Source: an uncultured bacterium (GTDB taxonomy: Bacteria > Elusimicrobiota > Elusimicrobia > Elusimicrobiales > Elusimicrobiaceae). Taken from it: a stretch of 64,000 nt of DNA. The DNA lies in assembly GCA_949291515.1 (NCBI GenBank), contig CASEVY010000012.1, positions 1 through 64,000 on the forward strand, written 5' to 3'. The position numbers were made by a program, and so were the translations under genes. The notes under the pieces were generated by a model. That model searched no databases. It was not told where the DNA came from and saw nothing but the letters and a program-made list of their open reading frames with translations. This document shows positions 6,508-60,814 of this stretch, in pieces. Every line of letters begins with the position of its first letter. The stretch's first letter is position 1.

Positions 6508-7479
6508 ATGCTTAAAAACAAAAAAGCTTTGAAAGGACGAAAAGGCTTTACTTTAATGGAGGTATTGGTTACGGTCATAATCGTAGGCGTGCTTGCCGCG
6601 ATAGCGTATCCGGTATTCAGCAAGTCGATAGCCAAGGCGAGAGCGACCGAGGCGGTCAATTTGCTTGAAATAGTCAAGAATAAACAGATACAGAATTTCG
6701 CCACTACAGGCGAATATGCTACCAGCATTTCTGACTTTAAGAAATTGACTACCGGCAAAGAAAATTTGGCCAGCGGGGTGGTAAACGACAACTACTATGT
6801 CAGTTTAAATACGGAAAAGGCCTGCGCTTCGGTAGCGTATAAGAAGGGCGATAAAGAACTGTTCAGTTTTTCCGCCGGTTATGAAACGCCAGGGTTAGGC
6901 TGCAGCGGCAATGTCTGCAGCAGCTTCGGAGACGTGATAGGCAGTGCGGAATCCGTATGCGACGTCGCTTTGCCTGAACCGGAGCCGGAAGTTCCGCCTT
7001 GCACGGCCTGCCCCGGAACGCAGCCTACATGTCCTACGGGACAAACGGGCAGCTATACCTGCAATATGACTACTTGCCAGTGGGAGGGCTCCTGCTCGCC
7101 CATACCAGGTTGGTGCGACGGCCAGACCAGGACATGTACCAGCAATGAGGGAACAGATTGCCATCAAACCTGCTCCGGAACGACTTGGGGCACTTGCGTT
7201 TGCAACAATGTTTATTCCTGCCAACCTGGTTCGTCCGGTTCGTTCCAGAGCTGCAAAGGAACCTGCAAATCCGACGGAAGCGGATATGAATGCACCGGCG
7301 ACACTGATAGCCATTACTGTTCCGACAGAAATACCTGCTTGGCTTTCGATAAAACCTGCGCCGATGGGACTGTACAGAAACAGACCTGCGACGACGGCGT
7401 AAAGGTGCTTTCCAGAACGTTCCACATTAAAGGCGGTTGGAGCTGCGAATTTAATACGTCAGCCTGCAAATGCGAATAG
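6508..7479 (+). CDS. Type IV prepilin 1 with cysteine-rich C-terminal extension
   Basis: 323 residues. A short basic leader ends at G13, with cleavage expected before F14 in KG|FTLMEV. Glu at mature position 5 (E18) and the hydrophobic assembly helix follow. The pilin core runs to about residue 151 and includes the KQ...Y...F segment and the Cys pairs seen in the other pilins here. A Pro/Glu hinge (LPEPEPEVPP) leads into a cysteine-rich domain (165-323) with TSP1-like fragments such as TCQWEGSC and CDGQTRTCTSNEGTDC. It is expected to be processed by a prepilin peptidase and displayed or assembled by a type IV pilus or type II-like system. A strong Shine-Dalgarno, its own promoter and its own terminator make it a single-gene unit. 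Confidence 0.88.
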   Translation: MLKNKKALKGRKGFTLMEVLVTVIIVGVLAAIAYPVFSKSIAKARATEAVNLLEIVKNKQIQNFATTGEYATSISDFKKLTTGKENLASGVVNDNYYVSLNTEKACASVAYKKGDKELFSFSAGYETPGLGCSGNVCSSFGDVIGSAESVCDVALPEPEPEVPPCTACPGTQPTCPTGQTGSYTCNMTTCQWEGSCSPIPGWCDGQTRTCTSNEGTDCHQTCSGTTWGTCVCNNVYSCQPGSSGSFQSCKGTCKSDGSGYECTGDTDSHYCSDRNTCLAFDKTCADGTVQKQTCDDGVKVLSRTFHIKGGWSCEFNTSACKCE

Positions 7480-21884: not shown

Positions 21885-22571
21885 TTAGCGCCCGCCGAAT
21901 CTGCGCTGTCTGCGGCCGTATTCCTCGACTGCTTGCATAAAATGAGCTTCCTTGAAGTCCGGCCACAATACGGGAGTAAAGTAAAATTCGCTGTATGCCG
22001 CCTGCCATAAAAGAAAATTGGAAAGGCGCTGTTCGCCCGAAGTTCTTACTATAAGATCGGGCTCCGGCAGATTGTTGTATAAAGCGTCGGAAATTTCTTG
22101 CTGCGTGATCTCTTTTTTGCCGGAGTCGATAAGTTTATTTACGGCGTCGGTTATCTCTTGCCGGGCACCGTAATTTATTGCAAGATTGAGCACCAAAGCT
22201 GGATTATCCTTCTTTATTTGCGCCGCTTTATCCATTTTTGCAAGAATGTCTTGCGGCAGAGGTTCGCGCCTGCCGCTGAAAATGATTTTTACTTTCGGGT
22301 CGTCTTCTTTAATAAGCTTGTCCAGCGTTTTTGACAGCAACTTCATCAAGGCGGATATTTCCGTTTTGGAACGTTTCCAGTTCTCCGTAGAGAATGCGTA
22401 AAGCGTTATGTATTTTACGCCCGTTTTTAAGGCGGCGTTTACCACGGCTTGCACGGAACGGGCGCCTTCCTCGTGCCCTTTGGCTTTGGGCAGGTTTTTA
22501 TTTTGCGCCCAGCGGCCGTTGCCGTCCATTATGAATGCGATGTGCGTGGGTATATTATTCTTTTCCGTCAT
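21885..22571 (-). CDS. uppS: Undecaprenyl diphosphate synthase
   Basis: 228 residues. FIMDGNGRWA holds the catalytic Asp near the N-terminus, and YAFSTENWKR and the C-terminal DLIVRTSGEQRLSNF complete the cis-prenyltransferase signature. It builds the C55 lipid carrier for cell-wall and glycan synthesis. No clear Shine-Dalgarno is seen before the ATG. Prepilin 2 lies directly upstream and ends in its own terminator, so uppS needs its own promoter, which I could not place with confidence. Confidence 0.94.
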   Translation of the reverse strand: MTEKNNIPTHIAFIMDGNGRWAQNKNLPKAKGHEEGARSVQAVVNAALKTGVKYITLYAFSTENWKRSKTEISALMKLLSKTLDKLIKEDDPKVKIIFSGRREPLPQDILAKMDKAAQIKKDNPALVLNLAINYGARQEITDAVNKLIDSGKKEITQQEISDALYNNLPEPDLIVRTSGEQRLSNFLLWQAAYSEFYFTPVLWPDFKEAHFMQAVEEYGRRQRRFGGR

Positions 22572-22647: not shown

Positions 22648-24117
22648 TTAGTTTTTTCTCTTGCACCTCAGCATTACGCCTGAGCCTGAAGAGTTATCGC
22701 AATGCCTGCCGTTGCTGCAGCTGTAAACGCCGCATGTAGTAGGAACATTCTCGCTCCTCATACATTTAAAGCTGCAAGTCGAAGCGGAACAATTTTGGGT
22801 GCAAAGTTCGGCATCTGTCTTTGAAGAATTGCACGTGCTTATGTAATCGCCTTGGTACTCGCCGCCTTCCCACCACATTCCGCCGTTGTAATATGCGTGG
22901 TGCCAACCGCATTTATCACCGGCATTTGTATAGGGCAATTTGCCGCCTATAAAATACTTTTTGCCGTTTCTTCTGCAGGTATTTTTATCTATAAAGCTGT
23001 AAGTGTTATGGCAGTCTGCCAATATGCCGACGTTAACCCTTTCGGGGACATATTCATAAACGCATTTCTTGCCGTCCAGCGAAACTTGCCCCGTAGGGCA
23101 GCAAATGCCGTTAGTTTCATACTTGCCGCTGGGGCATACGCATTGCCCTTTTGCGGGATCCCATTTGGATTTAGGGTTGCCCGCGCAGCAGGTGGCGTCG
23201 CTGGGATTGCATTCGCATGCATTTTGTGCTGCGTATTCGGAATCATAACATTTGTCAACTTCGCAAGAGGAGTCGTCCCAAGATTCCCATTGGCAGGAAT
23301 TGCTGCAAGTTCTTGTCATGGTTCCTTTTTTGCCTTCCGAGCACGAAGATGAATCCGTGCTGCCGGGTGAACATACGCCCTCATTGCTGCATGCGCTCCA
23401 TTCTCCTGTCTGCCATTGTGCGGTGGCCGCGTCGCATTTTACGCTGCGGGTGCGTGTGCCGCAATTGCCGCAGGCTTCGCTTTCCGCAGGTTTGTCGCCG
23501 GGGCAACTATACTTGCTGGGGCAGGATACGCCCGTATAATCGCATATGCCGGTATTGGTGTTGCAAGTACCGGTAATCGTGCTGCCGTCCCAGCAGGTCT
23601 GCGTACAGTCGCCGCAGTCTTTGGTGTCCTGCGTAATGCCGGATCCGCCGCCGTCGCCGCCCGGTGCGACATAATCACAGCCTACGGCGTCGGTCGCGAC
23701 TAAATCGGAGAACATTGAACATATGGTACTGTTCTCGCCGTTGATACAGCCCGTGGCTTGAGTTTCCACGTTCTTTACCAAAGTATAATTCTCCCCGTTC
23801 CTGTTGCTTACCGCGGAAATACAGGCGTCGCTTAAAGTGTAATTGAAACTGCCGACTGTCGCCGTATTGCTTTCCGTAGACGTAAGACCCGCTATGGGAG
23901 CATTTAAATCTTTAAACGTTTCGGCATATTTTTCGTTGTTAAGCATATAGTCCTGCTGCTTTAACGAAACAATATTCAAATTGTTTAAAGCATCGGAAAC
24001 CCTGCTTTTCTTTACGGATCTGGTGTAGGAAGGCAAAGCTATCGCCGCCAATACTCCTATTACCAGAACTACGACAAGCAGTTCCGTTAAGGTAAAACCC
24101 TTTCGGGATTTTTTCAT
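22648..24117 (-). CDS. Type IV prepilin 2 with long cysteine-rich extension
   Basis: 489 residues. Leader MKKSRKG, expected cleavage before F8, then FTLTELL with Glu5 and the assembly helix. The pilin core ends near residue 149 with the CxxC-type pattern shared by the other pilins. A Gly-rich hinge (APGGDGGGSG) leads to a cysteine-rich extension. It includes a TSP1-like module (CGNCGTRTRSVKC ... WQTGEWSACSNEGVC) at about 215-250 and a compact C-terminal domain (about 360-489) rich in Trp, Tyr, His and Cys. It is probably exported and assembled as a pilin or pseudopilin with an exposed disulfide-bonded head. It stands between frr and uppS, inside an otherwise conserved housekeeping order, with its own promoter and terminator. 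Confidence 0.88.
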   Translation of the reverse strand: MKKSRKGFTLTELLVVVLVIGVLAAIALPSYTRSVKKSRVSDALNNLNIVSLKQQDYMLNNEKYAETFKDLNAPIAGLTSTESNTATVGSFNYTLSDACISAVSNRNGENYTLVKNVETQATGCINGENSTICSMFSDLVATDAVGCDYVAPGGDGGGSGITQDTKDCGDCTQTCWDGSTITGTCNTNTGICDYTGVSCPSKYSCPGDKPAESEACGNCGTRTRSVKCDAATAQWQTGEWSACSNEGVCSPGSTDSSSCSEGKKGTMTRTCSNSCQWESWDDSSCEVDKCYDSEYAAQNACECNPSDATCCAGNPKSKWDPAKGQCVCPSGKYETNGICCPTGQVSLDGKKCVYEYVPERVNVGILADCHNTYSFIDKNTCRRNGKKYFIGGKLPYTNAGDKCGWHHAYYNGGMWWEGGEYQGDYISTCNSSKTDAELCTQNCSASTCSFKCMRSENVPTTCGVYSCSNGRHCDNSSGSGVMLRCKRKN

Positions 24118-40533: not shown

Positions 40534-43500
40534 ATGAATAAATATTCAAAGGAAATATATAACTTCTTAAGCAGTATCTGGAAGTCCTTTGCGGTTGGGC
40601 TGTGTAGTCGAACCGACAAAGAGAAATCCGTATGGGCTGCGACGCCCATACGCGCTTTTGGGCGCGGATTCACATTGGTTGAACTGCTTGTGGTGGTGCT
40701 TGTTATCGGCGTATTGGCGGCGATAGCATTGCCCGCTTACAATCGTTCCGTCCAAAAGAGCAGGATGAGCGATGCTTTGAATGTCTTGGATATAGCGGCA
40801 TCAAAGCAACAGGCAAATTATGTGGCGGGGGAGGGGTATGCGTCAAGCTTCAATGATTTATCCCTGCCAGTGAAAGGATTGACCGGCAATATAGAGAGCA
40901 GTATCCAAGGCGTAAAAGCCGGCAACTTTACATATACTTTGCAGAATACCTGCGTGGTAGCATCTCGTCCTGAAGACGACGTCACAATATACAGGAACTT
41001 CAATACCGACGAGACGGGCTGTACCGGCGAAGGCTGTAAATTGCTGGAGGGCGTATTGTCGAATATACCGATAGGCTGTAACGAATATGCGTCCGAGGAA
41101 GATGCCGATTCGGAAATATCGGCGCCGTCGGTAATAAGCTGTTCTTTCGACAAATGTTTAAGCGACGCCGGAACCTGTATAACCACTAACAGCACTTGTA
41201 TACAAGGCCGCATAATAACGCAGGCATGCGGCAACGGCGGCATTCAAATGAAAAAATGTTTGGAAGGCTGTCCGAACTATTGGAGCGAGTGGAGCGATTG
41301 TATAAACCAGACTTGTAAAGAATCGGAGCGCCCCGTTTCAATAGACAGAGTCGGGTGCGGATACTGTAATAACGGCACAACTTTCAAAGGTGTGAGAACA
41401 AGAAGCGTAACTTGTAATACATCCACGGGCCAATGGACGACTGGCGCGTGGTCTTCTTGCGTAAATGAAAACACCTGCGAGGAAACCAGCTGCAGCGATA
41501 CGAATTCCTGCGAATGTTCCCAATCGGCTAAGCCTAGCGTAACAGTGGGATGCGGAACCAAATGCAGCAACGGACAGTATATGGGTATTCAAACCAGAAC
41601 GGTAACCTGCAATCAGGCTACTGGCGAATGGTTTGTATCCACCACCGGTGAATGCGCCACCAATTTATCCTGCTGTCCGGGCGAAACTTCAACCAACGGC
41701 TGTTTGTGGGGCGTCACGAAGACCTGTCAAGCCAACGGCCAATGGGGGGAGTGTAATTATAAACTCTGTACGGGCGCGGAACCCGAATCGCAGAGAGAAT
41801 GCGCCGACGCCGATAATATAAGGACTTGCGGTATGCAAGTTCGCAGCGTAGACTGCGATTTGTCAAAAGGCGAATACGTAACCGGGGAGTGGACCGGTAC
41901 GTGTACGGCTCCCAAGTATAATAAGGTTCCGGAAACTGTACAGTTCTGCGGAACTTGCGGCAGCCAGACTAGAACCTGTCAGAAGACCTGCGACGGTTTG
42001 GGCCAATGCGAGAATTGGCTTGCGTGCGTAGAGGTTCCCGTTCCGCCGACAAGCCAGGCGAATTCTCAATATTGTTCTTATCACGGAACGAAGAATAGCC
42101 CTGAGGTTTGCGACGGGAAAGCGATACCTTCTTACAGTGTAGATTTTGAAAATACCGGCACTTGCGATTGTAATACCTATTTCTATGGCACTACATGCGC
42201 CACGGAATGTTCTTTGCCGGGCAAATATTGGAATACGGGCAGCTGCGAGACGTGCAGCAATAATACGGTCGGCAAGTATTGGACCGGCAACGGCATCACG
42301 TCCGAAATATGCCCCGACGCCACCTGTACCAATAAACCCATAGGTTATTATTGGACGGGCCACGGCGGTACGAATTCGACCTGTTCCGTATTGAAATGTA
42401 CCAATGCGGTTACGGGCCAATACTATACGAGTTTCAGCAAAACCGCGAAAGCCACCGGTTGGATAGAAGGTACTTCTCCGACTGGCTGTTCAGTCGCGGC
42501 GTGTACGAATAAACCTTATGGCTATTATTGGACCAGCGGCGGCGGAGTAACCGCGACGAGCTGTGCAAACAGCGCGTGCACCAACAAACCCGTTGGCAAA
42601 TACTGGAGCGGCCACGGCGGCACTTCGGCGACGTGTCCTACGGCAGATTGTACCAATGCCGAAATCGGTGAGTACTATACCTCTTTCAGCCAGAGCGCGA
42701 AGGATTCTTCTTCGGTGAATGGTACTTCGCCTGTGGGCTGCTCGGTCGCGGCGTGTACAAATACGACGCCCGGCAAATATTGGACTACCAGCGGCGGCAC
42801 ATCAGCTACGGGCTGCACGAACGCCAACTGTACCAATACTGTGGCTACGGGTAAGTACTACAGCGGCCACGGCGGTACTTCGGCTACGGGCTGCGCGGTG
42901 TCAGATTGTACCAATAAACCCACCGGCTATTACTGGACGGGTAAAGGCAATCCAGGCGAAGCGGCTTCCTGCCCGACGGCTAAATGTACCAATACGACAA
43001 AAGGCCAGTATTGGACTGGTTTCGGAAACACGTCTTCTACGTGTCCGTCAGCTTCTTGTACGAACAAGACCGTGGGCAAATATTGGACGAGCCACGGCGG
43101 CACTTCCGCCACCGGCTGTACCGAGGCTAACTGTACCAATACGGTAGCTTCGGGTAAATACTACAGCGGCCACGGCGGCACTTCGGCTACGGGCTGTGCG
43201 ATATCGGATTGTACAAATAAATCGGTAGGTTATTACTGGACCGGCAAAGGTAATCCAGGCGATGCGGATTCCTGCCCCAGTGCGAAATGTACCAATACGA
43301 CTGCGGGTAAATACTGGACGAGCCACGGCGGCACTTCCGCCACCGGCTGCACGAACGCCGATTGTACCAATACGGTGGCGACGGGTAAATATTACAGCGG
43401 CCACGGCGGTACTTCGGCAACGGGCTGTGCTGTATCCGATTGTACCAATAAACCTACGGGTTATTATTGGACCGGCAAAGGCAATCCGGGCGATGCGGAT

Positions 43501-46116
43501 TCCTGCCCGACGGCTAAATGTACGAATACGACGGTAGGACAGTACTGGACGGGCTTCGGCAATACGTCCTCTACGTGTCCGTCTGCTGCGTGTACGAACA
43601 AGACGGTAGGCAAATACTGGACAGGCCACGGTGGCACTTCCGCCAAGGGCTGTGCGGAAAAAGCTTGTACCAATACTACGGCGGGCAAATACTGGACGAG
43701 CCACGGCGGCACTTCCGCTACGGGTTGTACGAACGCCGATTGTACAAAGAAACCCGCCAAAGCGTACTTTACCGCACACGGCGGCACTTCAAACAGCTGC
43801 GCTTATGCGTGTAACAGCGGTTATACTCGCTCAGGTGATTCTTGTATATCGGATACGACGGTTTCGGCTACCTGCCCGAGCGGTTATTCCGGTTCCGCTA
43901 CAAAGAGAACTGTAATCACCAGCACGCTTAGCGGTGATACGACGAAAGTCACTTACGATTACAGCAAGTGCTACCGCAATAACTCTACGCCGGAAACGAG
44001 TTCAATTTCCTGCCCGAGCGGTTACCCCAGCGGCAGCGCCACGAAGAGCTTGTACTACAGATACTACTGCACCGATACGGCCCAGACGAAGGCTGGCACC
44101 TGTTCTGCCGAGAGAAAAGACGTAGCCTGGAAGACGAACTATAATTACTCCAACTGCTACAAGGATACGGGCGGAACGGCTTGCTCGACTTACAACAGCA
44201 CATTTAATAAAGGTACGACCACCAAGAGAGAATGGTCGAACACGGAAGGCAATGGCGTAAGACTTACGCAGTGGCCTTCGGTAGCAACGCAATGCTACTA
44301 TGACAGTACTCAGAATTGTTCCAACTACAGCAGTACCTATAATTTGGGCAGCGCGAACAGAAGATACTATGCGGGCGGAACGAATTCTTGGACGAACGCA
44401 ACTTCAAGCTGCTACTACTTGTCGTATCCTACGACAAGCGGCCAATCCTGCCCGAGCGGATATAGCGGCAGCTCGGTCAGAACGGACACCGTAAAGGTAT
44501 TCGCCAGCGGCTCTAAGACGACGACCGGCAGCACGTATAACTTAACCGGCTGTTACAAGAACGTAACCGGTGCGGCTGCTTCCTGCTCCAATACGAGCAG
44601 TTACAAATCGGGTTCTGCCACCGGCAACTTGGCGGGTACGAAGTATACGTGTACCAATACGGCTGCTTCATCGACGTCCAGCTGCAGCACAAGCACGAGC
44701 ACGATAGCGTCAACGGCGAACTATCAGAATTGCTACTATGATTCTTCGTCCACGACGAGCGGCCAGGCGTGCCCGAGCGGATACAGCGGCAGCTCTAAAA
44801 AGACTGTTATAACGAGGCATTATGCCAATACGGCGGGTACTGCGGACAGAACGACATCTACGGTATCTACGACGTATAACTTGACGGGTTGTTATAAAAA
44901 TGTAGCCGGTACGGCGGCGGCGTGTTCGCAGACTGCCAGCTATAAGTCAGGCACTGCCAGCGGTAATTTGACTGGTACTAAGTATACGTGTACCAATACG
45001 GCTGCCACATCGACCTCTAGCTGCAGCCCTAGCACGAGTTCAATAGCGTCTACGGCGAATTATCAGAATTGTTACTATGATATCTCGTCGACGGCAAGCA
45101 ATCAGGCATGCCCGAGCGGTTATACCAGCGGCGGCAGTGTGGCTAGTAAGACTACTATTACCAGACACTATGCCAATACAGCCGGTACAGCCGATAGAAC
45201 GACTACCACTGCGTCTACGACCTATTACTATAATAACTGCTATGCCTATAGCACAGGTTCGTATTGCCCGAGCGGATACAGCGGTACCTCCAAGAAGTAT
45301 GCGTATTACAGCGGCTCGGTATACTACGACTTAAGAGGCTGTTACAAGAATGTAACCGGTGCGGCGGCTTCCTGCTCCAATACGAGCAGTTACAAATCGG
45401 GTTCCGCCAGCGGTAACTTGGCGGGAACGAAGTATACCTGTACCGATAGCTGGAAATCCGGCAGTTATAGCAGCTGCTCAACCACTACCAGTACGATAGC
45501 GTCAACGGCGAACTATCAGAACTGTTACTATGAGTCTTCGTCAACGGCCAGCGGTCAGGCGTGCCCCAGCGGTTATACCAGCGGCGGAAGTGTGGCTACC
45601 AAGACGACGACTACCAGATACTATGCCAACACGGCCGGTACCGGTACCAGAACGACGTCTACGGTATCTACCAAGTATAACTACTATAACTGTTATAAGA
45701 CGGCATCGGCCGGCAGCCAGTCGTGCCCCAGCGGTTATACCAGCGGCGGGAACCGCGGCGTGAAGAATTACAGAGTATACTGCGGCAATACCGCTACTAC
45801 GACTTCAGGCAGCTGCGGAACGACAAGAGAATCGAATGTCTCTTACAACTATAGTTCCTGCTACGATTCCGGAAAGTGTAATGCCAAAGTAGGTTCCAGC
45901 TACTGCGGTACGGCTAAGAAAATGTACGGCGCCAGTTCGTATAGCGGATGTTCTTCTTGTGCTTGTACGATAGGTACAAAGCAGAGAGATACCAACTCGA
46001 CCGGTACGGCATGCTCCGGCTCCAACTATAAGATAAGACAGTTCTGCTGGAACGGTTCTTGGTCCTCGTGGAGCTCTTGCTCTACTAATCCGAGTGCACC
46101 GGCGTGTCCTTCTTGA
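40534..46116 (+). CDS. Giant type IV prepilin with tandem cysteine-rich repeats
   Basis: 1,860 residues. An unusually long leader of 45 residues ends in RG|FTLVELL (cleavage before F46, Glu5 at E50), then the assembly helix. The pilin core (46-182) is homologous to those of the other three pilins here. The extension starts with TSP1-like modules (about 200-560; for example WSEWSDC, RTRSVTCNTSTGQW, WTTGAWSSC). About 20 ephrin-receptor/TNFR-like repeats follow (574 to ~1100, core CTNxxxGxYWTGxGxTSxxC). Then comes a second repeat block (1114 to ~1760, core CPSGYSGS ... NYQNCYY) and a C-terminal Cys domain ending near WSSWSSC. If processed and assembled, it would project a very long disulfide-rich stalk. 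Own promoter and terminator; the ribosome-binding site is weak (GAGAG). Confidence 0.85.
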   Translation: MNKYSKEIYNFLSSIWKSFAVGLCSRTDKEKSVWAATPIRAFGRGFTLVELLVVVLVIGVLAAIALPAYNRSVQKSRMSDALNVLDIAASKQQANYVAGEGYASSFNDLSLPVKGLTGNIESSIQGVKAGNFTYTLQNTCVVASRPEDDVTIYRNFNTDETGCTGEGCKLLEGVLSNIPIGCNEYASEEDADSEISAPSVISCSFDKCLSDAGTCITTNSTCIQGRIITQACGNGGIQMKKCLEGCPNYWSEWSDCINQTCKESERPVSIDRVGCGYCNNGTTFKGVRTRSVTCNTSTGQWTTGAWSSCVNENTCEETSCSDTNSCECSQSAKPSVTVGCGTKCSNGQYMGIQTRTVTCNQATGEWFVSTTGECATNLSCCPGETSTNGCLWGVTKTCQANGQWGECNYKLCTGAEPESQRECADADNIRTCGMQVRSVDCDLSKGEYVTGEWTGTCTAPKYNKVPETVQFCGTCGSQTRTCQKTCDGLGQCENWLACVEVPVPPTSQANSQYCSYHGTKNSPEVCDGKAIPSYSVDFENTGTCDCNTYFYGTTCATECSLPGKYWNTGSCETCSNNTVGKYWTGNGITSEICPDATCTNKPIGYYWTGHGGTNSTCSVLKCTNAVTGQYYTSFSKTAKATGWIEGTSPTGCSVAACTNKPYGYYWTSGGGVTATSCANSACTNKPVGKYWSGHGGTSATCPTADCTNAEIGEYYTSFSQSAKDSSSVNGTSPVGCSVAACTNTTPGKYWTTSGGTSATGCTNANCTNTVATGKYYSGHGGTSATGCAVSDCTNKPTGYYWTGKGNPGEAASCPTAKCTNTTKGQYWTGFGNTSSTCPSASCTNKTVGKYWTSHGGTSATGCTEANCTNTVASGKYYSGHGGTSATGCAISDCTNKSVGYYWTGKGNPGDADSCPSAKCTNTTAGKYWTSHGGTSATGCTNADCTNTVATGKYYSGHGGTSATGCAVSDCTNKPTGYYWTGKGNPGDADSCPTAKCTNTTVGQYWTGFGNTSSTCPSAACTNKTVGKYWTGHGGTSAKGCAEKACTNTTAGKYWTSHGGTSATGCTNADCTKKPAKAYFTAHGGTSNSCAYACNSGYTRSGDSCISDTTVSATCPSGYSGSATKRTVITSTLSGDTTKVTYDYSKCYRNNSTPETSSISCPSGYPSGSATKSLYYRYYCTDTAQTKAGTCSAERKDVAWKTNYNYSNCYKDTGGTACSTYNSTFNKGTTTKREWSNTEGNGVRLTQWPSVATQCYYDSTQNCSNYSSTYNLGSANRRYYAGGTNSWTNATSSCYYLSYPTTSGQSCPSGYSGSSVRTDTVKVFASGSKTTTGSTYNLTGCYKNVTGAAASCSNTSSYKSGSATGNLAGTKYTCTNTAASSTSSCSTSTSTIASTANYQNCYYDSSSTTSGQACPSGYSGSSKKTVITRHYANTAGTADRTTSTVSTTYNLTGCYKNVAGTAAACSQTASYKSGTASGNLTGTKYTCTNTAATSTSSCSPSTSSIASTANYQNCYYDISSTASNQACPSGYTSGGSVASKTTITRHYANTAGTADRTTTTASTTYYYNNCYAYSTGSYCPSGYSGTSKKYAYYSGSVYYDLRGCYKNVTGAAASCSNTSSYKSGSASGNLAGTKYTCTDSWKSGSYSSCSTTTSTIASTANYQNCYYESSSTASGQACPSGYTSGGSVATKTTTTRYYANTAGTGTRTTSTVSTKYNYYNCYKTASAGSQSCPSGYTSGGNRGVKNYRVYCGNTATTTSGSCGTTRESNVSYNYSSCYDSGKCNAKVGSSYCGTAKKMYGASSYSGCSSCACTIGTKQRDTNSTGTACSGSNYKIRQFCWNGSWSSWSSCSTNPSAPACPS
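42253..43850 (+). repeat. Tandem repeat block 1 in the giant prepilin (ephrin-receptor/TNFR-like units)
   Basis: About 20 head-to-tail units, mostly 72-78 bases (24-26 residues), two of about 105 bases. Each begins CTN and ends C-x4-C. Units 8-18 form a higher-order pattern in which the same order of unit types (TVATGKYYSGHGG, GYYWTGKGNPG, GQYWTGFGNTS, GKYWTSHGG) recurs up to three times at a period of about 225-300 bases. The last unit continues into CNSGYTRSGDSC. Confidence 0.88.
43873..45760 (+). repeat. Tandem repeat block 2 in the giant prepilin (CPSGYSGS / NYQNCYY units)
   Basis: Long imperfect repeats of roughly 100-120 residues built from CPSGY(S/T)SG, RHYANTAGTADRTT, YNLTGCYKNV, SYKSGSASGNL, GTKYTCTNTA and STIASTANYQNCYY. 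Rich in Ser, Thr, Tyr, Cys and Gly. At least four related copies are visible between about 44440 and 45700, with shorter partial ones on each side. Confidence 0.8.
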
Positions 46117-49651: not shown

Positions 49652-49668
49652 GATCTTATTGATTATAT

Positions 49669-49706
49669 AAAAAACCCGTCTTAATAAAAAGACGGGTTTT
49701 TTTTAT
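49669..49706. terminator. Bidirectional intrinsic terminator
   Basis: 12-bp stem AAAACCCGTCTT/AAGACGGGTTTT flanked by A and T runs. It serves the convergent lipA and short prepilin genes. Confidence 0.85.
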
Positions 49707-49726: not shown

Positions 49727-50194
49727 CTATTCGATAATATATATGCTGTCGGTATTTTGTTTGCCCAAAGTGGAGCATATTTTTTTGTCGTTTTTGGCAT
49801 CCGATCCGACAGTGCATAATATATAGTCTTCGGTATAATTGCCGGAGATGGTATATGTGTAAGAGGAACCGGAAGTATGCGTAGCTGCTACGGACGAAGC
49901 GCCTAACGCATAAGAAAAATTATCGGTTGTAACTGTAGCTCCGCTTACGCTTACGTTTCTGCCTGTTACGTCAAAGTCCAAATCGGTAAATGAGGTCGCG
50001 TAAGAACCGTTGTTTTCGTAGTATTGCTGTTGGGCCGCTACCGTATTGGATACTATTCTTATTGCCTCCAAAGCTTTGCCCTTCTCTACTGAGCTCAAGT
50101 ATGACGGATATGCCATCGCCGCCAAACCCGCTATCAATAAAACTACTACCATCACTTCCAAAAGCGACATTCCTTTTTTGTTAAGTTTTTTCAT
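49727..50194 (-). CDS. Type IV prepilin 3, short form without extension
   Basis: 155 residues, a normal pilin size. Leader MKKLNKKG with cleavage expected before M9 (MSLLEV, Glu5 at E13); Met rather than Phe at mature position 1 is less common but tolerated in the family. The core has AAQQQYYENNGSYATSFTDLDF and a late Cys pair (ILCTVG ... KICSTLG), matching the other three pilins, and stops where they begin their extensions. The start is one base after the glyS stop, with the GAGAGGG ribosome-binding site inside the glyS end, so it is translated from the glyQS transcript. A terminator follows. Confidence 0.88.
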   Translation of the reverse strand: MKKLNKKGMSLLEVMVVVLLIAGLAAMAYPSYLSSVEKGKALEAIRIVSNTVAAQQQYYENNGSYATSFTDLDFDVTGRNVSVSGATVTTDNFSYALGASSVAATHTSGSSYTYTISGNYTEDYILCTVGSDAKNDKKICSTLGKQNTDSIYIIE

Positions 50195-50195
50195 A

Positions 50196-52280
50196 TTACC
50201 CTCTCTTTTGCAATTTGCTTATGTCGGCTACGGTTCCGGTCAGTATCCCGTTTATCCTGCCAAGCATATTTATTCTGTTTAGTCTTACTTTTTCGTCTTC
50301 GGCGTTTACCATAACTTTATCAAAGAAGTCGTTTAAAGGCAACTCGAACGCGGCTAAAGCCTTCAATATCGCACAATAGCCCTCTGTAGTATCCAATCCC
50401 AAATTGGGCTTTATTTGCGTTTCTATTTCGGTTAGGGCTTTTAAGAGGTTTTTCTCTTCTTCGTACTCGAAAAGAGACTCTGATATTTCGCCCGTTTGCT
50501 CAAATTGCCCTTTCTTGAGTATATTGCCGACTCTTTTTGCCGATTGCCCGACGCTTGCCAAGCTCTCGCTGTTACGGTATTGCTTTAACGCTTCCGCGGC
50601 AGCCAAGATGCTTGTGGGCGATTTGGCGCTATTGCGCAGGGCTGATATTTCGTCTTGGGCGGAACCTTGTGCCTCCAATATATTTGCCAAGCGCTGCCAG
50701 AGGAACTCTTCCAACTCCGCGGAATGTTCGTTCTGGCGGGGGAGAAGGTCATTTGCCATTGCGACAATTTCCTTTATCGATATATCGAAATTGTTTTCCC
50801 CTATTATTCTTACCGCGCCCATAGCCTGCCTTCTTAAAGCGTAAGGATCCTCGCTGCCGCTGGGGATTTGCCCCATAGCGAAATTGGCCGCCAAAGAATC
50901 CATTTTTCCGGCTAATGAAACAACTGATCCCGCCATCGTAAAGGGCAAGGGTGAAGATGCCGTCAGCGGATAATAAAACTCGCCTATCGCTTTGGCCGCG
51001 TGTTTGTCCTTGCCGGTTTTTTCCGCATATACTCCGCCCATATAGCCTTGCAGCTCGCTGAATTCATATACGACTCCGCCGGTCAAATCGGCATAAGCAT
51101 AATGCGCGGCCTCTCTTATGGCATTTTTTTCTTCCTGCTTCAGATTAAGTTTGTCGGCTATTTTGCCGGCCAGCTTTTCTACCCGTTCGCTCTTTTCCAG
51201 CATATTGCCCATACCGTCTATAAAATTGACGCCTGCAAGTTTCCCGCGCATTGCGTCAAGGCCGGTTTTTAAGTCATTCTCATAGAAAAATACTGCGTCG
51301 GTAAATCTGGCGGTCATTACGTTCTTAAAGCCGGTTCTTACCTCGTCCTGATTGTCGCTTACGCCGTCGCGCACCGCAATAAAATGCGGCTGAAGTTCGC
51401 CTTCGTCGTTTACTACGGGGAACATTCTTAGCTGCGTCTTTAATACGGTCGTAATCAATTCGCGCGGCAAGGTTAAAAAGCGTATATCCATATCGCCGCT
51501 TAAAGCTACGGGGTGCTCCGTAAAGGAAAGCGTTTCGGTAATCAAGCCTTCGTCCAAATCCGCCTTATAGCCCAAAGCCGCGGCGCAGGCCTCTACGGTT
51601 TTTATCAAAGCGCGTCTGCGTTCTTCTATGTCGGCCAGTATCGGCTGAGGCTGATTTTTTAAAGTTTCGATATATACTTCGGGTGACTCTATCCTTATCG
51701 GTTTTCTGCCGAATGATATTAGAGGATAGGTATTCCTGCCGGATTTTACGCCAGCCAGTTCGAATTTTACCGTTTTGTCGCCGTATAAGGCTAATATGCT
51801 TCTTATCGGCCTTGCAAAATGAAATCCGCTTTCTTCCCAGACCATATTCTTCGGGAAATTGAGGCTTTTTATTATTTCCGCAAATACCGCAGGCAGAAGT
51901 TTCTGGGTCTTTTCGCCTTTTATTTTTATTTTGGCGTAAATGAAAGGACCCTTGTCTGTATCTACGGTAATAAGCTGAGAAGGTTTTAATCCGTTCTTAG
52001 CCGCGAATCCAGCCGCTTGCGGGGTATAATTCCCGTTTCCGTCTTTAAGCAGCTTGGCCGGCGGTCCTTTGACCTCTTTTTGCATATCTTCCGCTACGGA
52101 AGCCAAATCGGTAATTTCCAAGACGAGTTTTCGGTACGTTCCGAATGTCCTCAAAGATACGTATTTAAGGCGGTGCTCCTGTAAAATCGCCGCGGCGTTA
52201 TTTTTTAATTGCTCCAAAGCAGGCAGCAAAAAACGCGCGGGAAGATGTTCTGTTCCTATCTCTAAAAGTGCATTGTTCAT
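50196..52280 (-). CDS. glyS: Glycyl-tRNA synthetase beta subunit
   Basis: 694 residues from the ATG at 52280, which overlaps the glyQ TGA by 4 bases. A longer frame from 52481 lies inside glyQ and is not GlyS sequence. The N-terminus [17 protein letters not shown] and segments such as [11 protein letters not shown] and [15 protein letters not shown] are typical. The C-terminal anticodon-binding region ends in [16 protein letters not shown]. It forms the alpha2beta2 enzyme with GlyQ. Confidence 0.94.
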
Positions 52281-53137
52281 ATAGTTTCTTCCTTCTCTTC
52301 GGCGGCTTTGATGTATTGCGCCGCGCAGAGCTTGGCCAGCCCTCTGATTTTGGCGATTATATTCGTCCTGTCGGAAACGGATATCGCGCCGCGCGCTTCC
52401 AAAGTGTTGAAATAATGAGATACTTTCATCGCGCAGTCGTATGCCGGAAGATATAACCCCTTTTTGCAAAGTTTTTTGCATTCTTCCTCATTCTCCAAGA
52501 CATAGCGCCTTAAATTTTCCACGTCCGCTTCCTCGAAGTTGTAATGCGAAAACTGTCTTTCACTCTCTTTTACAAGTTCTCCGTAAGTGGTATCGTCATT
52601 CCACATAATATCAAAGATGGTATCTTTCTTTTGGCAGTACATCGCTATACGCTCAAGACCGTATGTTATTTCCGCCGTAATTGGCTTTAAAGTATAGCCC
52701 GCCATTATCTGGAAATATGTAAACTGCGTTATTTCCATACCGTCGAGCCATATTTCCCAGCCGACGCCGCTGGCCCCTAATGTGGGGGACTGCCAGTCGT
52801 CTTCTATCCAGCGCACGTCATGGAGTTTCGGGTCTAGCCCGAGTACTTTAAGAGAATTTAAATATAATTCCTGAACATTTTCCGGCGCTGGTTTTAAAAT
52901 TACCTGAAATTGATAGTATTTGCCCAGCCTGTTTGGATTCTCTCCGTATCTGCCGTCGGCAGGCCTTCTGCACGGTTCGACATAACAGGCTTTCGTCGGC
53001 TTGCTCGTAAGCGAGCCGAAAAAGGTCGCGGGATTAAATGTGCCCGCCCCCTTTTCAACGTCATAAGGTTGTACAACTATACAGCCTTGCTTCTTCCAAT
53101 AGGTTTGGAGTTCGTGTATTATATCTTGGAAATTCAT
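52277..53137 (-). CDS. glyQ: Glycyl-tRNA synthetase alpha subunit
   Basis: 286 residues, standard size. [37 protein letters not shown] and [20 protein letters not shown] are hallmark sequences. It holds the catalytic site for Gly-tRNA formation. No Shine-Dalgarno is seen before the ATG, and a perfect TATAAT lies 7 bases upstream, so the mRNA may be leaderless. Confidence 0.95.
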
Positions 53138-58734: not shown

Positions 58735-59739
58735 TTAGAAAACCGATTTTATATCATATTTATCCAGCAGTCGGATATATTCGTTCTTGCTTATTCTTAA
58801 TTCTCTTTTTAGTTTTTTTAAATCTTGCTCGGTAATTTTTGAGGCGTCTTCCGGCAACAGAAATCGTCCGTCCTTTATCATTCCCGGCAAATTGTCCAAA
58901 GGACGGAAAGTTCTTTCTTTCCCGCTTGTTTTGTCGATTAAAACGATAAGGCCGGTAATGTCGTCGGGCATTAACTCGCAGCGGGTATTCATTATGCCGT
59001 CGCCTCTGTAGGGGGAGGAATAGTTTTTATGGTGGTTTTTCTCGTTTGCATATTCGTCGGAGAGGCCGAAAGCGTGTCCCGTTTCGTGCAGCATAATGCA
59101 GAAAGAAGGAGGAATATGCCCTATGTTTGGGGCGAGAGGGGCAATCTTTTTATTCTTTAGATTTTCCAAAAACTCTAATCCCTTTGCCAAGCGCTTTTTG
59201 CTTATTTTTGACAGCGGTATTTGCAGTCCAAACAAATCGGCTGCGGTTGTTACGCGGATATCTTTCTGCTTTTTGCTCAGACAGATTGACAGCCCGCTTT
59301 TGAAAGCCGTCTTTTTATCGGAAAAATAGGAGTGTCCGTCATAATCGTCGCAGAAATTTTCGTCGGATATTATTTCTATGTCCGCTTTGCCCATGGTATT
59401 TTTGCCGCAGCGTCCGAGATAATTAAGTTTAAAAGGTTTTTTTAGGGTTTGGATTATGTCTTTAAATTCGTTTTTTCTGTCGGAGCTTTCAAGTATTTGC
59501 GCGGAGCCTAAAGTCCAATATCTGAAAGCGGCTTCAAAGAAGAGCGACAGATATTTGTCTTGCGTCATTGGTTCTGAGCCGTATGTGCAGTAGTTTATGG
59601 TATCGGATTTGACAAATTTATAAATCAGATATTTGTCGCTTGAGAAAAAATCCCACTCTCCGCCCGCCAATCCCCACGTCGCTCCCGACGCTGCAATTCG
59701 GCTGAAAATTAAAATCAAAAAAAACAGTATTTTGTTCAT
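58735..59739 (-). CDS. Secreted zinc metalloprotease, copy 1
   Basis: 334 residues with a signal peptide (about 1-18). The metzincin-type zinc site HETGHAFGLSD gives H218, E219, H222 and third ligand D228, and a downstream GIMN (Met250) fits a Met-turn. Six or more conserved Cys suggest disulfides. It aligns without gaps along its full length to the copy upstream. The C-terminal ~100 residues (TSGKERTFRPLDNLPGMI onward) are nearly identical between copies. It follows copy 2 by 34 bases with no clear ribosome-binding site. Substrate unknown. Confidence 0.82.
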   Translation of the reverse strand: MNKILFFLILIFSRIAASGATWGLAGGEWDFFSSDKYLIYKFVKSDTINYCTYGSEPMTQDKYLSLFFEAAFRYWTLGSAQILESSDRKNEFKDIIQTLKKPFKLNYLGRCGKNTMGKADIEIISDENFCDDYDGHSYFSDKKTAFKSGLSICLSKKQKDIRVTTAADLFGLQIPLSKISKKRLAKGLEFLENLKNKKIAPLAPNIGHIPPSFCIMLHETGHAFGLSDEYANEKNHHKNYSSPYRGDGIMNTRCELMPDDITGLIVLIDKTSGKERTFRPLDNLPGMIKDGRFLLPEDASKITEQDLKKLKRELRISKNEYIRLLDKYDIKSVF

Positions 59740-59773
59740 AAACGTGGTAAGGGTGCTATATGATAGCCTGTGT

Positions 59774-60778
59774 CTAAAGTTTGAAGTCGATGCCGTACTT
59801 GTCCATAAGATCTTTATATTCTTGTCGGCTGATTCTGAAACTTCTTTTAAGTTTGGAAAAATCCTCTTCTGACATTTTTGAAGTATCCTCCGGCAGCAGG
59901 AATTGTCCGTTTTTTATCATACCCGGCAGATTGTCCAAAGGCCGGAAAGTTCTTTCTTTCCCGCTATTTTTATCCGTTAAAGCTATCATGGCCGTGATAT
60001 CGTCTGCGCTTAACGTACACCAATTGTTCATTATTCCTTCGCCTCTGTATGGCGAAGAGAAGGCCGGATCATGATTTCTTTGCGAAGAATATTCGTCTGC
60101 CAAGCCGAAGGCGTGTCCGGTTTCGTGAAGCATGGTACACAAGGTATAGGGCACATTTTTCAAGTTGTCGTACATGGAGGAAACTTCGCCGTTTTTTAAA
60201 TCGTGCATATAGTTTATTCCTTTCGCGAATTTCTTTTTGCTTATTTTGGAGAGCGGAATTTCAAGACCCAATATGTCTATGCTGGAATTTATCCGCATAT
60301 TCTTTTGTTTTTCCAGGATACAAATCGAAATGCCGCTTCTGAAAGCCGTTTGATGATAGGTAAAATATGAACGGTCTTTATAAAAATTGCAGAGGTTTTG
60401 ATCTGATAGTATTTCTATGTCTACTTTACCCTTGGTGTTTTCGCCGCAGCGGCCCATATAATTAAGGGTAAAGGGTTTGTTTAAGGTTTGTATTATGTCT
60501 TCAAATTCGGCGCGTCTTTCGGACTTTTCGAGCCATTTGGCGGTGCCCAAAGTCCAGTATCTAAAAGAAGCCTCGAAGAAAAGGGAAAGATATTTGTCCT
60601 CTATCATCGGCGCGCCGCCGTAAGTGCAATAGGCGATAGAGTCGGATTTGAGAAACTTGTATATCAGATACCGCCTGTAAGATGCGGCTTCATGGTTCGT
60701 TCGCAGCAGTCCCCAAGTATTGCAGAACGCGTAAAACGGCGTAAAGATGATAAAAATCAGGATTATTATCTTTCTCAT
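59774..60778 (-). CDS. Secreted zinc metalloprotease, copy 2
   Basis: 334 residues from the ATG at 60778. An in-frame ATG at 60814 would precede the signal peptide by 12 residues and break the equal length with copy 1. Signal peptide MRKIIILIFIIFTPFYAFC, then the same fold with HETGHAFGLAD (H218, E219, H222, D228) and GIMN (M250). It starts the two-gene unit. The promoter at 60785-60814 would place transcription start at or next to the ATG. Confidence 0.82.
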   Translation of the reverse strand: MRKIIILIFIIFTPFYAFCNTWGLLRTNHEAASYRRYLIYKFLKSDSIAYCTYGGAPMIEDKYLSLFFEASFRYWTLGTAKWLEKSERRAEFEDIIQTLNKPFTLNYMGRCGENTKGKVDIEILSDQNLCNFYKDRSYFTYHQTAFRSGISICILEKQKNMRINSSIDILGLEIPLSKISKKKFAKGINYMHDLKNGEVSSMYDNLKNVPYTLCTMLHETGHAFGLADEYSSQRNHDPAFSSPYRGEGIMNNWCTLSADDITAMIALTDKNSGKERTFRPLDNLPGMIKNGQFLLPEDTSKMSEEDFSKLKRSFRISRQEYKDLMDKYGIDFKL

Positions 60779-60784
60779 ATATAA

Positions 60785-60814
60785 ATTATGGTAAATATAG
60801 TTGCGTAGGGGCAA
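60785..60814 (-). promoter_or_regulatory. Promoter of the metalloprotease pair
   Basis: On the minus strand TTGCCC (60809-60814), 18-base spacer, CATAAT (60785-60790), ending 6 bases before the ATG at 60778. No ribosome-binding site in between. Confidence 0.45.

What the first reader, a model, noticed from the sequence alone, without database searches (positions are those of the whole stretch)
49727..50194. The short pilin defines the common core, and extensions attach at one fixed point in three paralogs
Prepilin 3 ends just after the late Cys pair (KICSTLG...). At the equivalent point prepilin 1 has a Pro/Glu hinge, prepilin 2 a Gly hinge and the giant an acidic stretch, each followed by cysteine-rich modules of about 170, 340 and 1,680 residues. 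This looks like a modular platform in which a constant pilin core displays interchangeable heads.
Basis: partly seen in the sequence, partly recalled or inferred. Interest (0 to 1): 0.72.

Follow-up and report, generated by a model that had tools for sequence, protein, structure and literature searches.

The report
Pilins with shared core, different heads
Relatives of a gut Elusimicrobium carry families of hair-forming (type IV pilin) proteins in which one short filament-building core is joined, always at the same spot, to very different cysteine-rich heads, and in at least one pair the cell keeps the cores alike by copying them onto each other while the heads stay different.

Summary
The 155-aa gene at 49727-50194 (-) is a short type IV prepilin. 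Three other prepilins in the window carry C-terminal Cys-rich extensions of 172, 342 and 1,678 residues, and two more lie elsewhere in the genome. In all five the extension starts just after a fourth core cysteine lying exactly 14 residues after the third; the short pilin ends at that same column. Corrections: (1) the short pilin is not the common core. Extended pilins form their own four-cysteine subfamily (97/92 support), so the extension was mostly gained once, with at least one independent gain elsewhere. (2) Heads are not freely interchangeable. The prepilin-1 head was found only on prepilin-1 orthologues and a fourth head is an orphan, but the prepilin-2 tip also occurs on distant pilin cores and on a non-pilin secreted protein. 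New: in two species the cores of prepilin 2 and its off-window paralogue evolved in concert (39 informative sites to 0) while upstream DNA stayed orthologous (49 to 6) and heads stayed distinct. In a 1.64-Mb relative, pilins with identical core DNA bear unrelated tips. Best reading: modular minor pilins displaying adhesive heads, core homogenised by gene conversion. New variant of a known kind. Adhesion is inferred, not shown.

The parts
49727..50194 (-). Prepilin 3 (P3), short, headless type IV prepilin, 155 aa; 2 core Cys; immediately downstream of glyS (50196-52481)
   Evidence: Pfam N_methyl 1.6e-4, Pilin_GH 9e-5, ComP_DUS 1e-5
49665..49706 (.). Inverted repeat (18-nt arms, 94% complementary) with T-run: terminator after P3, shared with the convergent lipoyl-synthase-like gene
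6508..7479 (+). Prepilin 1 (P1), extended, 323 aa
6547..6960 (+). P1 mature core to C4 (residues 1-138); AF2 pilin fold, best PDB match Neisseria pilin 5vxx/1ay2
6961..6996 (+). P1 Pro/Glu hinge (residues 139-150); AF2 pLDDT falls to 57 in block 141-150
6997..7476 (+). P1 Cys-rich head (about 160 aa), no Pfam match; found only on P1 orthologues in 5 of 90 family genomes
22648..24117 (-). Prepilin 2 (P2), extended, 489 aa
23677..24096 (-). P2 mature core to C4; converted with paralogue L011 (from about codon 25 on)
23617..23676 (-). P2 Gly hinge (residues 141-160); AF2 pLDDT 39-43
23521..23616 (-). P2 first Cys-rich module (to GVSCP), shared with L011; end of the conversion tract
22651..23055 (-). 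P2 terminal tip domain (135 aa); relatives on other pilin cores (G018, G072) and on a non-pilin secreted protein (G018 L104; probably G103 L098)
40534..46116 (+). Giant extended prepilin, 1,860 aa, 135 Cys in the mature chain
40669..41079 (+). Giant core to C4 (residues 1-137)
41080..46113 (+). Giant acidic hinge and Cys-rich extension: CGTQTR-type modules, about 19 'GKYWTGHGGTSATC' repeats, about 8 'CPSGYSG' modules; repeat number differs between orthologues

Best explanation
P1, P2 and the giant (with L009 and L011 elsewhere in the genome) are modular type IV pilins: a prepilin-peptidase-processed pilin core with a fixed four-cysteine C-terminus, followed by a short hinge and a chain of small disulphide-rich modules ending in a specific tip. 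The core would insert the subunit into the pilus made by the chromosomal secretin/PilB/PilC machinery, most likely as a low-abundance or tip subunit, so that the heads are displayed at the cell surface and bind gut-lumen or host targets. P3 and the other short pilins are head-free relatives that could form the shaft. Shown by sequence: homology, architecture, attachment point, subfamily tree, concerted evolution of the cores of one paralogue pair, and one tip on several carriers. Inferred: assembly into pili, disulphide bonding, display, adhesion, and recombination between cores as the route by which heads diversify.
For: Prepilin N-termini in all. Four-Cys core, C3-C4 = 14, tail directly after C4 in 5 of 5 own paralogues, and the C-x-C-x-C end in 39 of 40 extended pilins. 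AF2 gives a confident pilin core, a confidence trough exactly at the hinge (P1 141-150, P2 141-160), then a new ordered module; the P1 core matches Neisseria pilin (prob 1.00). Extended clade 97/92; a single clade of all extended pilins is rejected, p-AU 0.012, so a second gain exists. P2/L011 in two species: core 0 orthologous vs 39 concerted sites, upstream 49 vs 6, Fisher p 2e-20. G018: two pairs with 351/351 identical core nucleotides and tips without significant similarity. The P2 tip is on type-A cores (own, G001), type-B cores (G018, G072) and a secreted non-pilin scaffold. Machinery in the genome: secretin-PilB-PilC-five minor prepilins, two PilT-like ATPases, prepilin peptidase.
Against: No head matches a family of known function in Pfam, so adhesion has no direct support. 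P1 and L009 heads were not seen on any other core. The P2 tip's high identity between species lies in a broadly conserved patch and is no evidence of recent tip transfer. The tip's spread over type-A and type-B cores could in part be vertical descent. Gene conversion was shown for one paralogue pair only. No expression or piliation data.
Confidence: 0.72

Rival explanations
1. Extended pilins are one ordinary, vertically inherited pilin subfamily that gained a Cys-rich tail once; apparent interchangeability is just fast divergence of the tails.
For: Extended clade supported; P1, P2, giant and P3 are syntenic orthologues in G001; P1 head stays on the P1 core.
Against: Identical core DNA with unrelated tips in G018; the P2 tip on a non-pilin scaffold; a second, independent gain of extension; concerted core evolution.
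Confidence: 0.2
2. The extended proteins are not displayed on pili but are pseudopilin-like anchors that hold large Cys-rich domains at the inner membrane or periplasm, or are secreted through the same machine.
For: A 1,678-residue tail with about 130 Cys is far bulkier than known pilus subunits; GspG/GspH models also match the N-termini below their cut-offs.
Against: Prepilin leader, E5 and long helix intact; T4P-type operon and PilT-like ATPases; small disulphide modules in a string could pass a secretin (inference); a tip and stalk repeats shared with a Sec-type secreted protein suggest an extracellular role.
Confidence: 0.15
3. Head switching by a site-specific inversion system, as in the PilV shufflon.
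For: Constant N-terminal pilin part with variable C-terminal part; same logic as PilV.
Against: No convincing inverted-repeat sets around P1, P2 or P3 (16-28 nt arms at 73-85%, chance-like, apart from the terminator); the conversion tract covers the core, not the heads.
Confidence: 0.03

Closest known systems
Modular type IV pilins (PilB and PilC of Streptococcus sanguinis; Raynaud et al. 2021, PMC8179133)
   Same: Pilin module with a bulky extra module joined at its C-terminus by a short linker; minor, probably tip-exposed subunits; adhesion role shown for PilB. The same paper reports modules shared between modular pilins and PilC/PilY1 carriers.
   Different: Here a paralogue family shares one four-Cys core, the heads are Cys-rich chains absent from Pfam, sizes reach 1,860 aa here and an open frame of 2,290 aa in G001 (that survey's extreme was 860 aa), and the core is gene-converted in at least one pair.
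PilV shufflon of IncI plasmids (R64, TP114; PMC9045228, PMC5430464)
   Same: Constant pilin N-terminus with alternative C-terminal segments that set adhesion specificity.
   Different: No invertible cassettes or inverted repeats found here; separate genes, each with its own head; recombination homogenises the core.
pilE/pilS antigenic variation of Neisseria (from general knowledge)
   Same: Pilin gene conversion between copies in one genome.
   Different: There the variable part is rewritten from silent copies; here the constant core is rewritten and the variable heads are spared.
CofB-CofJ of ETEC type IVb pili and PilC/PilY1 tip adhesins (PMC8179133, PMC10191384)
   Same: Large minor pilin with extra C-terminal domains; separate secreted tip partner.
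   Different: No domain similarity shown; the possible secreted partner (MVTYxPxP scaffold) is seen in relatives, not in this genome.

Membership tests
Type IV pilins | Class III leader ending in Gly, then F/M-x(3)-E5 and about 20 hydrophobic residues | tested here: met
   All 5 extended pilins and P3; PF07963 above cut-off
Type IV pilins | Pilin fold: long alpha1 helix plus antiparallel beta-sheet with a C-terminal Cys pair | tested here: met
   AF2 models of P1 and P2 cores; Foldseek of P1 to 5vxx/1ay2, prob 1.00, E 6e-3 to 1e-2. Disulphides not tested
Type IV pilins | Assembly machinery in the genome | tested here: met
   Secretin, PilB-type and PilT-type ATPases, T2SSF platform, prepilin peptidase
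Modular pilins | Extra C-terminal module joined to the pilin module by a short linker | tested here: met
   Hinge trough in AF2 confidence followed by an ordered module; alignment
Modular pilins | Extra module is a defined domain not specific to pilus biology | tested here: inconclusive
   No Pfam match, but the P2 tip also sits on a secreted non-pilin protein
Modular pilins | Functional role of the module (adhesion) | not testable with these tools
   Needs binding assays
PilV shufflon | Inverted repeats flanking invertible C-terminal cassettes | tested here: not met
   No such repeats near P1, P2 or P3
PilV shufflon | Rci-type recombinase gene nearby | not tested
   No recombinase search was run
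pilE/pilS-type antigenic variation | Promoterless silent copies donating the variable region | not tested
   Not searched; the observed tract is in the constant core

The most novel reading that the evidence does not exclude
The conserved pilin core acts as a recombination platform as well as a structural one: repeated homologous recombination between paralogous cores within a genome keeps all displayed subunits compatible with the same filament and lets new heads be joined to a working core, giving a recombinase-free, chromosome-wide adhesin display system drawing on a module pool shared with secreted non-pilin carriers.
Probability: 0.3. Interest if true: 0.8.

Novelty: new variant of a known kind. 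Interest (0 to 1): 0.62.

Why it matters
Modular pilins are known mainly as scattered single examples. Here a bacterial family has whole sets built on one core, with the same attachment column, one clear case of gene conversion sparing the heads, and one tip on different carriers. That makes the open question of how pili gain new binding specificities testable by comparative genomics, and offers Cys-rich heads up to about 2,100 residues long as a test of what can pass through a pilus secretin. It also goes with a very large prepilin expansion (12 to over 100 genes per 1.0-2.3 Mb genome) limited to this family among those sampled.

Tried and rejected
Recent transfer of the P2 tip between species: its 93% fourfold-site identity looked striking, but a 22.0-23.2 kb patch including the neighbouring gene is equally conserved, so dropped. 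Shufflon: no suitable inverted repeats. TSP1, EGF or GCC2/GCC3 identity of the head modules: suggested by eye (W..W..C / CGTQTR), but Pfam gave nothing up to E 1 for the own-genome heads and PDB sequence search nothing for the giant's repeats. The 2009 E. minutum genome paper and the 2020 groundwater Elusimicrobia paper are not held.

Full report
WHAT IS THERE. The ORF at 49727-50194 (-) encodes a 155-aa prepilin with a normal leader (MKKLNKKG|MSLLEVMVVV), lying directly downstream of glyS and closed by a two-way terminator at 49665-49706. The window is C12:1-64000 of a 1.50-Mb genome in 13 contigs; PF07963 finds 16 prepilins in it. Six are short major-pilin-like genes, five are extended (P1, P2 and the giant in the window; L009 and L011 outside), and five form a minor-pilin cluster next to secretin, PilB-type ATPase and platform genes. 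Two PilT-like ATPases, a prepilin peptidase and a second, Tad-like ATPase/secretin pair are also present. Close named relatives are uncultured Elusimicrobia MAGs with RUG/SUG isolate names, which I read as ruminant-gut genomes.

THE ATTACHMENT POINT. Aligned cores show four cysteines in every extended pilin. C3 and C4 are exactly 14 residues apart in all five, C4 lies at mature residue 137-140, and the tail follows at once. P3 has only the middle pair and ends 15 residues after C3, that is, at the C4 column. Across 40 extended pilins from related genomes, 39 have the same terminal C-x-C-x-C arrangement, with spacings of 14 (22), 10 (10), 15 (4), 17 (2) and 11 (1); 13 of 60 short pilins match the loose pattern. 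AF2 puts a confident pilin core up to about residue 140, a drop in confidence over 141-150 (P1) or 141-160 (P2), and a new ordered module after it. The P1 core matches Neisseria pilin structures. A fixed attachment point is partly what any C-terminal extension would give; the invariant extra cysteine is not.

THE CORE TREE. In a careful tree of 85 cores, the extended pilins plus one headless four-Cys pilin (L107, from a separate Elusimicrobiota MAG) form one side of a branch with 97/92 support, and P3 lies on the other side with the short pilins. Forcing all extended pilins into one clade is rejected (p-AU 0.012), because the extended pilins of G007 and G010 fall among the short ones. So the extension was mostly gained once, with at least one further gain, and L107 is either a loss or an ancestral headless state. 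P3 is therefore a relative, not the common core. Support within the tree is limited by about 140 columns, and naming the groups after seeing the quick tree weakens the AU test.

CORES EVOLVE IN CONCERT, HEADS DO NOT. P2 (window) and L011 (contig C2) share their core, hinge and first module but have unrelated heads. Both genes, each with its own head and upstream DNA, occur in G001. Parsimony-informative sites in the four-way alignment: upstream 49 for orthology, 6 for grouping by genome; core 0 and 39; hinge plus first module 1 and 15 (Fisher p 2e-20 for upstream against core). Most of the upstream signal comes from the L011 pair; upstream of P2 the two species align less well. In G001 the two cores differ at 1 of 351 nucleotides, against 83-85% identity between species. 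This is the pattern of gene conversion bounded by the leader region and the end of the first module. Independent duplication in each species is made very unlikely by the orthologous flanks and heads; assembly collapse in G001 cannot explain the same grouping in the window genome, where the copies still differ by 7%.

HEADS. In G018 (one contig of 1,643,562 bp, a size I recall as that of Elusimicrobium minutum Pei191; not verified) six extended pilins share cores at 82-100% nucleotide identity, followed by varying numbers of a Cys-rich repeat of about 28 aa and by different tips. Two pairs have 351/351 identical core nucleotides and tips with no significant similarity. Matches to the 135-aa P2 tip occur in 7 of 90 family genomes: on the P2 core (own, G001), on type-B cores (G018, 58% identity; G072, one gene seen whole and one cut by a contig end) and on a Sec-type secreted protein in G018 (L104), probably also in G103 (L098, N-terminus not seen). 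L104 also carries the pilin stalk repeat. The P1 head stays on the P1 core in five genomes and the L009 tip is an orphan. Giant orthologues differ in length (mature 1,815, 2,240 and 1,532) and in repeat number (19, 22 and 9 of one repeat type). No head of the own genome matched Pfam.

EXPANSION.

MECHANISM. Shown: architecture, homology, subfamily structure, core conversion in one pair, and tip sharing. [quoted passage not shown] the hinge and chain of small modules carry the tip outward, small modules being compatible with passage through a secretin; the tip binds a target. Core conversion would keep subunits compatible with one filament while heads diverge.

COMPARISON. It works like, and by architecture belongs with, modular pilins (PMC8179133; reviewed in PMC10191384). 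It differs in being a paralogue set on one core, in its Cys-rich heads, its size and the core conversion. It is not a shufflon by the tests made here. Most work rests on MAGs; functions are untested.

Noticed in passing
G000-G059: Very large prepilin expansion confined to this family among those sampled: 12 to over 100 N_methyl genes in 1.0-2.3 Mb genomes (G026 238 first-look candidates), against 3-11 in the sister family.
   Followed up: partly
L079:7209-8000, L104:307-2448, L112:4063-5646, L168:9525-10184: Secreted non-pilin proteins with a MVTY[YF]P[TVA]PY motif just after the signal peptide, encoded close downstream of prepilin genes in several relatives; G018 has five copies with near-constant N-termini and different lengths, one bearing the P2-type tip. 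Not found in the window genome. Possible pilus-associated partner.
   Followed up: partly
L107:5001-5438: A headless pilin with the full four-Cys core that ends 9 residues after C4, inside the extended clade.
   Followed up: partly
window 22001-22400: Highest nucleotide identity (99%) to G001 of all 400-nt windows compared (mean 87%), in the gene downstream of P2.
   Followed up: no
G000:C8:103459-105916: Second secretin and an ATPase fused to a MinD/CpaE-like domain: a separate, probably Tad-like pilus system.
   Followed up: no
window 58735-60814: Two tandem paralogous secreted-looking proteins with a HETGHAFGL[SA]DEY zinc-protease-like motif.
   Followed up: no
window 43074-43532: 231-nt tandem duplication (2 copies, 85%) inside the giant's repeat region; repeat number differs between orthologues.
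   Followed up: partly
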